This document shows, one piece after another, positions 46,559 through 50,823 of a stretch of DNA of 64,000 bases (position 1 is the first letter of the stretch; each line of letters begins with the position of its first letter). The notes under the pieces are model-generated. The model was not told the DNA's origin. It saw nothing but the letters and a program-made list of their open reading frames with translations, and searched no databases. The DNA comes from Blattabacterium cuenoti (GTDB taxonomy: Bacteria; Bacteroidota; Bacteroidia; Flavobacteriales; Blattabacteriaceae). The stretch is from assembly GCF_014252435.1 (NCBI RefSeq), contig NZ_CP059220.1, positions 248,001 to 312,000 on the forward strand. Direction: 5' to 3'. The translations under genes and the position numbers were made by a program.

Positions 46559-47965
46559 TTATTTTCCAATACAAAATTTAGAAAAAATATTGTTCAATAT
46601 GTCTTCACTTGTTATCTCTCCTATGATTTCACCCAAATGATTTGATGCACATTTAATATGAATGAGAATCAATTCCTCTGATATACCTCGTTTTAAAGAA
46701 TCATAAGCGAATTGGATTTCATTCAATGAATTCTTAAATGATTCATAGTGTCTACTTTGTAAAACAATATATTTTCTTTTTTTTAATTTTTTCATAAAAA
46801 CACAGCTTAAATAGTTTAGCATTTCTTCAATTCCTTCTCCGTTTTTTGCAGAAATATGAAACAATCCATCTACTTTGGACTTGATATCGATATAATCATG
46901 AAAATGACAAATATCAGATTTATTTGCTATGGCAAAAATTATTTTTTGCGAATTTTTTTTATAAATATTTTGAATTATATGAATCATTTCTTTTTGTTTT
47001 TTTTCATTGAATGAAGAATCAAAAACATATAATATTAATTGAGAATTTTCAATTTTTTTCATCGTATTTTTAATACCCATATATTCTATTGGATCATGTA
47101 CATTTTTCCTCATTCCTGCAGTATCTAAAAATCGAATTGGAATTCCTTTTAAAATCATAGACTCTTCTATAATATCTCTAGTCGTTCCTCCTATAGGGGA
47201 TATAATAGAACGATCTTCTTGAATAATTTGATTAAATAATGTAGATTTACCTACATTTGTTTCCCCGATAATTGCTACAATGATACCTGTTTTTATCGCA
47301 TTTCCTAATGAAAATGATTCAACTAAATTTTTGATTATTTTGATCAATTTTTGTAAAAAATTACATAGTTCCATTCTATCAGAAATCGATACTTTTTCTT
47401 CGTGAAAATCCAAATCTAATTCTAACATAGATGAAAAATCTAATAAATCTTGTCTTAATTTTTTAATCATATTAGATAATGAACCTTTAACATGCTGTAA
47501 AGAAATATCGTGATAAACTTTATTATCAGATGAAATCAGATCGGATATTGCTTCAGCCTGTGATAAATCTATTTTCTTATTTAAGAAAGCACGAAATGTA
47601 AATTCACCAGCACGAGCTAAACGCACGCCATTTCGAATTAAAAGTTGCAAAATATTTTGTTGTATATAATAAGATCCATGACAGGAAATTTCCACCATAT
47701 TTTCTCCTGTATAAGATAAAGGATTCCTAAAAACAGAAACTAATACTTTATCTAAAAAAGAATATTTTTTATTGTTATTATTATCTTGAATATATCCTAA
47801 ATGAATAGTATGTGTAGGTTGATCTTCTAGTTTTTTATTTTTTTGTATAGAAAAAAAAATTTTACTAACAATAGATATGGATTGATTTCCTGAAATACGA
47901 ATGACAGAAATCGATCCATAACCAAAAGGAGTAGCTAATGCTGTAATAGTATCATCATTTAACAT
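46559..47965 (-). CDS. mnmE: tRNA uridine-5-carboxymethylaminomethyl synthesis GTPase MnmE
   Basis: MnmE with MnmG modifies U34 of several tRNAs. The 468-residue product has the N-terminal folate-binding domain (DTITALATPFGYGSISVIRISG, about 5-26; EISCHGSYYI), the inserted G domain with GETNVGKSTLFN (about residues 227-238), DTAGM and NKSD, and the C-terminal FSKFCIGK carrying the conserved cysteine of the CIGK ending. All key elements are present. mnmG is not in the window. Confidence 0.97.
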   Translation of the reverse strand: MLNDDTITALATPFGYGSISVIRISGNQSISIVSKIFFSIQKNKKLEDQPTHTIHLGYIQDNNNNKKYSFLDKVLVSVFRNPLSYTGENMVEISCHGSYYIQQNILQLLIRNGVRLARAGEFTFRAFLNKKIDLSQAEAISDLISSDNKVYHDISLQHVKGSLSNMIKKLRQDLLDFSSMLELDLDFHEEKVSISDRMELCNFLQKLIKIIKNLVESFSLGNAIKTGIIVAIIGETNVGKSTLFNQIIQEDRSIISPIGGTTRDIIEESMILKGIPIRFLDTAGMRKNVHDPIEYMGIKNTMKKIENSQLILYVFDSSFNEKKQKEMIHIIQNIYKKNSQKIIFAIANKSDICHFHDYIDIKSKVDGLFHISAKNGEGIEEMLNYLSCVFMKKLKKRKYIVLQSRHYESFKNSLNEIQFAYDSLKRGISEELILIHIKCASNHLGEIIGEITSEDILNNIFSKFCIGK

Positions 47966-48059
47966 GATATTGATTCATATGAATATGGTTTGATTAAAAG
48001 TAAGTACTTTTTTATAAAAAAAAAAAATACAATGAAATATATTGATCCAATTTATTTAT

Positions 48060-48815
48060 GATTTCAAAAGAATTGTTCCATTTTATATCAATCATATCAA
48101 AAGCTGGATATTCGATTCTTTTTAATTCCTTATTTTACAATGTAATGATACCAATATATTGATGAAATTCCTTTTTATATCAAACATTCGTTTTTTATTA
48201 CAGAAAGTGAATGAAACAAATTATGAAAATTGAAAAAATCATAGGCCTATTCAATATATAATAGGTTATTCTTATTTTTGGAATAAAATATTTTTTGTTA
48301 ATGAAAAAGTATTGATTATAAAGGATGAAACACAAGAACTCGTATTTTGTATATTAAATGATATATAAAATATTGATACGATTGATGATGAACCATAAAT
48401 GATATCTGTATTCATAAATCATACATCCAAACATAATGTAAAAATTGACTTTACCAAAGTTGACATTTTGGAAAACGATATATGAAAAAATAATTCATAG
48501 ACCAACTATTATCGTAAGAAATCCTAAATATTCGAAACAAAAATTACTCAGTTATCATATTATACAATATGAACCTGATAAGGAATGATTTGTTCCGTAT
48601 GAAGATCCTTTAATATTCTATCAAAAAATTTATTTCTGGATGAAAAAAAAATTTACTAATGTAGTTTATGTTGATTTCGCAATTCGTCCATTGATTTACA
48701 CGGATATGATTCTTATTCTAAAAAAGAAATGGATTTGTTCATATAAAAATTAAAAAATATTTTCAATGTTTTGATAGAATGATTCGTGCTAAATATGATG
48801 GATACAATAAAAAAA
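48060..48815 (+). pseudogene. prmC: Pseudogene of PrmC/HemK release-factor glutamine methyltransferase
   Basis: The plus strand keeps the order of PrmC blocks in broken frames. RPIQYIIGYSYFWNKIFFVN (48243-48302) matches the PIQYILG..F....F.VN block. VLIIKDETQELVFCIL matches vLIPRPETEELV. HNVKIDFTKVDILENDI matches the motif before the active site. IIVRNPKYSKQ stands where the catalytic NPPY should be. YEPDKE, FVPYEDPLIFYQKI, VVYVDFAI and a final AKYDGYNKK follow. Stops interrupt it (48364, 48396, 48483, 48587), the GTGSG SAM-binding loop is deleted and NPPY has become NPKY. The start is not definable. PrmC methylates the GGQ glutamine of RF1/RF2. Confidence 0.85.
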
Positions 48816-48822
48816 TAATAAA

Positions 48823-50823
48823 ATGACTAATAAAAAAATAAAAGAAAAAATATATAGATTAAGAAAAGAATTATCAATACTCAATAAAAAATATTACAAT
48901 TTTAGTTATTCGGACATATCTGATTTTGATTTTGATAAAAAATTGAAAAAACTATATGATTTAGAGAAAAAATACCCTGAATGTTTTGATTCATCTTCTC
49001 CTACTTTAAAAATAGGATCGGAAATAGAACAGAAAAAATCCAAGGCTATCAATTATAAATATAAAATGTATTCTATTAATAATTCTTATTCTAAAGAAGA
49101 ATTAAAAAAATGGAATAATAAAATAGAAAAATCGATTAACAATTTTTCCTTTATATGTGAACCAAAGTATGATGGAGTAGCTATCAATCTGATTTATAAA
49201 AATGGCATTCTTATACAAGCCATAACTCGTGGAAATGGAGAAAAAGGAGAAAATGTGATAAGAAACATCCCAATCATCAATTCGATTCCCCTAAGATTGA
49301 TAGGGAATCATTATCCTTCATATATCGAAATACGAGGAGAAATATTCATACCTATTCATCATTTTGAAAAAATGAATCAACAACGCCTAAAACATGGATT
49401 CAAACTATATTCTAATCCAAGAAATACAGCTAGTGGAATGTTACTTAATGTTCAAAACAAATCATACCAAAAAAAAATATTATGTTGTATAGCATTTCAT
49501 GCAGTAAGCACAGAATTTCATATCAATCAATACGATTCTTTACAAATCATGAAATATTGGGGTTTTAATATTCCATATCATACACGTATTTGCAAAAACA
49601 TCAAAGAAGTTTTTCGATTGATAGACTTTTGGTCCCATTACCAAAATAAACTTTCTTATCAAATAGATGGAATAGTCATTAAAATCAATGAATATGAAAA
49701 ACAATCGATTTTAGGATATACCAAAAAATATCCAAGATGGGCAATAGCCTATAAATTCAAACAACCATATTCAGAAACTAAATTAATAGGATTAACTTTC
49801 CAAATTGGAAGAACCGGTATTATTACTCCTGTAGCGAATGTTGATCCTACTCCAATGAGTGGAACAACAGTAAAAAGAGTCTCCTTATACAATATCAATT
49901 TCATAAAAAAAAATAAAATTCATTATGAAGATACTTTTTTATTAGAAAAAAGGGGTAATGTAATACCAAAAATCACCAAAATAAATGAGCAAAAAAGATC
50001 CGTCAATGCATTTCCTATCCCATTTATCAAAAAATGTCCATCATGTCATAGTTATTTAATAAAAAAAAAACAATTATTCTATTGTATGCATGGAAATTGT
50101 TCTTCTAAAATAATTATGAAATTGAAACATTTTGTCAGTGATAATGCTATGAATATAAAAAAAATTGGTTATAAAATGATTGAAAAATTATATAACAATG
50201 GTGTGTTATCTCATTTTCATGATTTTTTTCAATTAAAAATAGAACAATTACTCCAAATAAATGGAATCAAAGAAAAATTAGCAAAAACCATGATTCATAA
50301 TATCCACATATCTAAACAAAAGACTCCTTATCATAATGTATTATATGCTTTGGGAATTCGTCATGTTGGAGAAGATATATCTCAAAAATTAACAATCAAT
50401 TTTTTGGATATTCATTCTTTAATGAATGCAAAATATAATGATTTAATATCCATTCCAGGAATAGGAAATCAAATTTCAAAAAGTATTATTCATTACTTTT
50501 CTGTTCAAGAAAATAAAAAATTAATTCAAGTTCTTATTCAATTAGGATTGAATTTTTGTTCTGATTTTTCCATGACAAAAAATAAAATACATCCTATTCA
50601 AGGTAAATATTTTGTTTTTACAGGTAAATTATCTTGTATGACTCGTAAAAAAGCCAAAATTATCATTGAATCGTTTGGAGGTATAGTTTTTAACAATGTA
50701 AACAATCAAATTGATTTTATCATAGTTGGAAATAACTATGGATCCAAACTAAAAAAAAGTATAGATAAACATCATATCAAAATTTTAACAGAAAATCATT
50801 TTTTGGAAATGATTGAAAATTGA
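48823..50823 (+). CDS. ligA: NAD-dependent DNA ligase LigA
   Basis: LigA seals nicks in replication and repair using NAD+. The 666-residue product has the Ia domain, the adenylation motif CEPKYDGVAINL with lysine K115, the OB-fold (QIGRTGIITPVANVDPTPMSGTTV, about 326-349), a four-cysteine zinc finger (CPSCHSYL..YCMHGNCSS, about 406-427), helix-hairpin-helix repeats and a C-terminal BRCT domain (GKYFVFTGKLSCMTRKKAK, about 594-612). All domains are present, in contrast to the trimmed PolA nearby. It starts right after the prmC remnant. Confidence 0.97.
   Translation: MTNKKIKEKIYRLRKELSILNKKYYNFSYSDISDFDFDKKLKKLYDLEKKYPECFDSSSPTLKIGSEIEQKKSKAINYKYKMYSINNSYSKEELKKWNNKIEKSINNFSFICEPKYDGVAINLIYKNGILIQAITRGNGEKGENVIRNIPIINSIPLRLIGNHYPSYIEIRGEIFIPIHHFEKMNQQRLKHGFKLYSNPRNTASGMLLNVQNKSYQKKILCCIAFHAVSTEFHINQYDSLQIMKYWGFNIPYHTRICKNIKEVFRLIDFWSHYQNKLSYQIDGIVIKINEYEKQSILGYTKKYPRWAIAYKFKQPYSETKLIGLTFQIGRTGIITPVANVDPTPMSGTTVKRVSLYNINFIKKNKIHYEDTFLLEKRGNVIPKITKINEQKRSVNAFPIPFIKKCPSCHSYLIKKKQLFYCMHGNCSSKIIMKLKHFVSDNAMNIKKIGYKMIEKLYNNGVLSHFHDFFQLKIEQLLQINGIKEKLAKTMIHNIHISKQKTPYHNVLYALGIRHVGEDISQKLTINFLDIHSLMNAKYNDLISIPGIGNQISKSIIHYFSVQENKKLIQVLIQLGLNFCSDFSMTKNKIHPIQGKYFVFTGKLSCMTRKKAKIIIESFGGIVFNNVNNQIDFIIVGNNYGSKLKKSIDKHHIKILTENHFLEMIEN

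What the first reader, a model, noticed from the sequence alone, without database searches (positions are those of the whole stretch)
48060..48815. prmC (hemK) pseudogene: release-factor methylation apparently lost
Seen: PIQYIIG, ETQELV, the pre-catalytic DILEND block, NPKY, YEPDKE and EDPLIFYQKI occur in the order of PrmC, with stops between them, the SAM loop deleted and the catalytic NPPY changed to NPKY. Known: PrmC methylates the GGQ glutamine of RF1/RF2, and its loss slows growth badly in E. coli. Inference: this symbiont lives without the modification, or another methyltransferase took over, or RF1/RF2 adapted.
Basis: partly seen in the sequence, partly recalled or inferred. Interest (0 to 1): 0.68.

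Follow-up and report, generated by a model that had tools for sequence, protein, structure and literature searches.

The report
Dead release-factor methylation gene in Blattabacterium
A cockroach-dwelling symbiont carries a wrecked copy of prmC, the gene for the enzyme that chemically tunes the proteins ending protein synthesis, and has no spare copy; this is a real but not unprecedented gene loss that its stop-codon-reading proteins seem able to tolerate.

Summary
The finding is real. Window 48032-48814, between mnmE and ligA, is a full-length prmC (hemK) relic with 5 frameshifts, 5 in-frame stops, a 33-residue deletion removing the SAM loop, and NPPY changed to NPKY (alignment score 386; best null 45). 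The genome is a Blattabacterium. No second prmC exists in its 586 kb; the only other hit is UbiE/MenG. Among 49 Blattabacterium genomes, 39 keep prmC open at this place, 8 carry a single -1 shift in a 10-12-base A or T run but otherwise look normal, and two (this one and G020) have lost it. An intact relative, G063, suggests two separate losses. RF1 and RF2 stay intact with GGQ. RF2 has Ser at the position of E. coli 246, an ordinary residue; only K-12's Thr246 makes RF2 almost wholly dependent on methylation. No compensating change was seen in the release factors, and UGA stops are not avoided. Eight ~300-kb genomes of the same family also lack prmC but keep both factors; Carsonella and phytoplasmas are published precedents. 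Best reading: termination runs on unmethylated RF1/RF2. Methylation itself was not measured. This is a new instance of a known kind of loss.

The parts
48032..48814 (+). prmC (hemK) pseudogene, full extent by frameshift-aware alignment
   Evidence: score 386 vs null maximum 45; 5 frameshifts, 5 stops; TIGR03534 E 6.6e-10
48246..48266 (+). PIQYIIG, relic of the RPIQY(V/I)IG motif of PrmC
48326..48343 (+). ETQELV, relic of RPETEELV
48362..48363 (+). junction of the 33-residue deletion that removes the SAM-binding loop (FDIGTGSGCISITL)
48520..48531 (+). NPKY in place of the invariant NPPY
48568..48630 (+). YEPDKE-stop-FVPYEDPLIFYQKI, relic of the C-terminal conserved block, broken by TGA at 48586
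46559..47965 (-). mnmE, intact neighbour that marks the conserved position
   Evidence: TIGR00450 385.9 bits (cut-off 252.6)
48823..50823 (+). ligA, intact neighbour that marks the conserved position; found in all 49 genomes of the genus
   Evidence: NF005932 642 bits (cut-off 369)

Best explanation
This is a non-functional relic of prmC, the release-factor glutamine N5-methyltransferase, in a Blattabacterium endosymbiont. Shown: the gene is broken in many ways, including loss of the SAM loop and the catalytic NPPY; no second copy exists; RF1 and RF2 are intact with GGQ; the orthologue is open at the same place in 39 of the 48 other genomes. Inferred: relaxed selection in a small, asexual, slow-growing symbiont let the gene decay, and termination now runs on unmethylated RF1 and RF2. 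This is tolerable because RF2 carries Ser at the position of E. coli residue 246 and unmethylated factors are only modestly slower and less accurate.
For: Frameshift-aware alignment and null. Only UbiE/MenG as another hit in the whole genome. Genus survey: 39 open, 8 single homopolymer shifts, 2 lost. RF1 and RF2 open with GGQ and with Ser at the 246-equivalent. Eight family members without prmC keep RF1 and RF2. [quoted passage not shown] unmethylated RF2 kcat 6.0 against 10.4 per s on UAA (PMC8131318).
Against: No direct measurement of RF methylation. Many short motifs survive, so the decay is not very old and the cell may still be adjusting. An unrecognised unrelated methyltransferase, or a host enzyme, could in principle modify the factors.
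Confidence: 0.88

Rival explanations
1. prmC was replaced: another methyltransferase of the symbiont, or a host enzyme, now methylates RF1 and RF2.
For: GGQ is kept in both factors, so a substrate exists. Animals have HemK-type enzymes (HEMK1 acts on mitochondrial release factors; PMC8904536, listed).
Against: The only other hit to the PrmC, HemK-family and MTS models in the genome is UbiE/MenG, and a hit at the same level is seen in relatives that still have prmC. No import route for a host enzyme is known.
Confidence: 0.07
2. The gene still makes some protein through transcriptional slippage or frameshifting, as suggested for homopolymer-frameshifted symbiont genes.
For: Eight relatives have a single -1 shift at a run of 10-12 A or T with an otherwise normal prmC. 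Slippage restores the frame in 12-50% of transcripts of some genes in other insect endosymbionts (PMC5009743).
Against: Here there are five shifts, five in-frame stops, loss of the SAM loop and NPKY. Slippage cannot restore an active enzyme.
Confidence: 0.01
3. Assembly or sequencing error made an intact gene look broken.
For: The genome is very AT-rich and a 12-base A run lies just before the start of the gene.
Against: Lesions are spread over 780 bases and include a 33-residue deletion, point stops and a changed catalytic motif; both neighbours are intact.
Confidence: 0.02

Closest known systems
prmC/hemK of other Blattabacterium (39 open copies, including genomes whose chromosome lengths equal BBge, BGIGA, BNCIN, BBor, BPAA, BCpu and the Mastotermes strain)
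   Same: Same place between mnmE and ligA, same motifs in the same order
   Different: Those are open reading frames of about 300 residues with GTGSG and NPPY; this one is broken and lacks both
prmC-less members of the same family with ~300-kb genomes (G072, G293, G247, G260, G298, G310, G318, G325)
   Same: No prmC, but RF1 and RF2 kept with GGQ
   Different: There no relic of prmC reached the search threshold; here a readable relic remains
Carsonella ruddii and the phytoplasmas, published as lacking hemK/prmC
   Same: Host-dependent bacteria with small genomes without the enzyme
   Different: Unrelated lineages, not Bacteroidota
E. coli prmC deletion mutants
   Same: No GGQ methylation
   Different: The severe phenotype depends on Thr246 of K-12 RF2; Blattabacterium RF2 has Ser at that position

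Membership tests
PrmC (release factor glutamine N5-methyltransferase, TIGR03534) | Sequence similarity over the whole length | tested here: met
   Profile positions 1-299 aligned, 127 of 262 residues identical, local score 386 vs null maximum 45
PrmC (release factor glutamine N5-methyltransferase, TIGR03534) | Score above the curated cut-off of 199.1 bits | tested here: not met
   37.1 bits for the best piece
PrmC (release factor glutamine N5-methyltransferase, TIGR03534) | SAM-binding loop (D-x-GTGSG) | tested here: not met
   Deleted at 48362/48363
PrmC (release factor glutamine N5-methyltransferase, TIGR03534) | Catalytic NPPY | tested here: not met
   NPKY at 48520-48531; NPPY invariant in the seven intact copies aligned
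prmC pseudogene | Reading frame broken by several lesions while the orthologous position is kept | tested here: met
   5 frameshifts and 5 stops; mnmE and ligA flank it as in relatives
prmC pseudogene | Relaxed constraint relative to intact orthologues | tested here: inconclusive
   pN prmC/ligA is 1.51 and 1.44 for the relic, against 0.70-1.43 for other pairs (0.85 for the comparable distant pair G063-G031); right direction, but the top of the control range is close
Loss of GGQ methylation | No other prmC in the genome | tested here: met
Loss of GGQ methylation | Unmethylated glutamine in RF1 and RF2 | not testable with these tools
   Needs mass spectrometry

The most novel reading that the evidence does not exclude
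In Blattabacterium the path to losing prmC may run through an intermediate stage: eight genomes carry a -1 shift in a 10-12-base A or T run while the rest of the gene stays under selection, so the enzyme may be made at a reduced level by slippage before final loss in lineages such as this one. Six of the eight genomes in one fast-evolving set have a disrupted prmC against 4 of 41 elsewhere (set picked after the fact, genomes not independent).
Probability: 0.25. Interest if true: 0.45.

Novelty: new member of a known kind. Interest (0 to 1): 0.3.

Why it matters
prmC is listed among genes universally kept in 34 enterobacterial endosymbionts (PMC11481867), so a loss with RF1 and RF2 both intact is a natural knockout, with a relative that keeps the gene (G063) for comparison. 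It bears on how much GGQ methylation is worth in a slow-growing cell with an ordinary (Ser/Ala246) RF2. It does not reveal a new mechanism.

Tried and rejected
1) Second prmC or a HemK-family substitute: only UbiE/MenG found. 2) Adaptation of release factors: no shared or striking change at or near GGQ. G000 has 1 (RF1) and 4 (RF2) substitutions at otherwise invariant columns, no more than G025 (4 and 5), which keeps a nearly normal prmC. 3) Avoidance of UGA stops: not seen. UGA is 18% (G000) and 25% (G020) of stops against 12% (G063) and 11% (G010) in the first 200 kb. 4) UGA reassignment: rejected for this genome, since RF2 is intact and UGA ends 28 of 157 long ORFs. 5) A single shared loss in G000 and G020: the tree joins G020 with G063, which has an intact gene; AU p 0.042 against G000+G020, a weak rejection. 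6) A prmC remnant in G020: score at the edge of the shuffles, so not claimed. 7) Search of named genomes with LigA found nothing. 8) RNA family in the region: none. 9) Prior report of prmC loss in Blattabacterium: none in the open library searched; the main comparative Blattabacterium papers may not be held there.

Full report
What it is. The region between mnmE (46559-47965, minus) and ligA (48823-50823, plus), both intact and above curated cut-offs, contains no long ORF. A frameshift-aware alignment of this stretch to a profile of seven intact Blattabacterium PrmC proteins (A1) runs from 48032 to 48814 and covers the whole protein. It has 127 identities in 262 residues, five frameshifts (48132, 48193, 48234, 48475, 48728), five in-frame stops (TGA 48059, TGA 48208, TAA 48366, TAA 48396, TGA 48586), a 33-residue gap that removes the SAM loop, and NPKY for the invariant NPPY. 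The local score is 386; 40 shuffles and the reverse complement reach at most 45. The curated PrmC model finds the relic on its own at E 6.6e-10.

Where it is. The window is part of a single-contig 586,140-base genome. The host species of this genome was not identified.

No second copy. Whole-genome searches with the PrmC, HemK-family and MTS models give only one other place, near 499.7 kb, which is UbiE/MenG (230.8 bits, cut-off 216). A search with the Blattabacterium PrmC profile finds only the relic.

Genus survey. Of 49 genomes, 39 have prmC open at this place. Eight have a single -1 shift, each at a run of 10-12 A or T, and no stop otherwise: G003, G012, G025, G009, G011, G017, G028 and G062. 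G000 (the window's genome) is broken many times over. In G020 only about 290 bases remain between mnmE and ligA, with no clear trace of prmC. In the tree of LigA, MnmE, RF1 and RF2, G020 pairs with G063, whose prmC is intact, and G000 is their sister. This suggests two losses, though a single loss is rejected only weakly (AU p 0.042, long branches).

Selection. Between the relic and G063, the nonsynonymous divergence of prmC is 1.51 times that of ligA; for the intact pair G063-G031 it is 0.85. Other control pairs range from 0.70 to 1.43, so this is suggestive, not decisive. The pair G011-G062, which share a shifted A run, has pN/pS 0.22 in prmC, as low as intact pairs. The homopolymer-shifted copies thus look constrained. 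Synonymous differences are high for the distant pairs, so these ratios are rough. The case for a pseudogene rests on the lesions, not on these ratios.

Release factors. RF1 and RF2 are open in this genome and carry GGQ; the local sequences are FRSSGAGGQHVNKTES (RF1) and FRSSGAGGQNVNKVET (RF2). RF2 has Ser at the position of E. coli residue 246, as do all the other RF2 sequences compared; the register of residue 246, four before GGQ, is from own knowledge of E. coli RF2. In E. coli K-12, Thr246 makes RF2 almost completely dependent on methylation, while the Ala246 form is not. All other bacteria are reported to have Ala or Ser there, and prmC deletion is viable with the Ala246 form (PMC5373646). 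In vitro, unmethylated RF2 (Ala246) has a kcat of 6.0 against 10.4 per second on UAA, and unmethylated factors are two- to four-fold less accurate (PMC8131318). UGA is not avoided in the two prmC-less genomes, and the release factors show no distinctive compensating change.

Precedents. Eight ~300-kb genomes of the same family lack prmC by both models but keep RF1 and RF2; ~200-kb genomes of genus g26 keep it. By size and family these are probably scale-insect symbionts (such as Walczuchella and Uzinura) and Sulcia, which is inference. hemK is listed as absent in Carsonella (PMC2175510), and prmC is absent in phytoplasmas (PMC4014445). In contrast it is universally kept in 34 enterobacterial endosymbionts (PMC11481867). 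No paper in the open library mentions prmC together with Blattabacterium.

How it most likely works. Shown: an active enzyme cannot be made from this gene, and no other copy exists. Inferred: RF1 and RF2 act unmethylated, with a modest loss of speed and accuracy that a slow-growing symbiont with an ordinary Ser246 RF2 tolerates. A replacement enzyme or host supply is possible but has no support. The finding is a well-supported case of gene erosion, of modest interest.

Noticed in passing
L128, L137, L150, L134, L136, L142, L153, L164 (prmC of G003, G012, G025, G009, G011, G017, G028, G062): prmC carries a single -1 frameshift at a run of 10-12 A or T in eight Blattabacterium genomes, three at one site and five in a more N-terminal region, with the rest of the gene conserved; possible transcriptional slippage or homopolymer assembly error.
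   Followed up: partly
L174:1147-1305 (G020 prfB): In the other prmC-less genome, prfB (RF2) is interrupted by an A-rich stretch with four TAA codons, flanked by a repeated 'acaaatagaattaaaaaa'; the C-terminus resumes in frame. Possibly an assembly artefact, since UGA is 25% of stops in this genome, but not resolved.
   Followed up: partly
L175 (G007 prfB) and L194 (G014 prfB): prfB has a single -1 frameshift in each of these genomes by the frameshift-aware alignment.
   Followed up: no
G072, G293, G247, G260, G298, G310, G318, G325 (same family, ~300 kb): Five genera of small genomes in the family lack prmC but keep RF1 and RF2, whereas the ~200-kb genomes of genus g26 keep prmC.
   Followed up: partly
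first 200 kb of G000, G020, G063, G010 (L213-L252): UGA is a more common stop in the two prmC-less genomes (18% and 25%) than in two with prmC (12% and 11%), the opposite of avoidance; G+C content differs too and may explain it.
   Followed up: no
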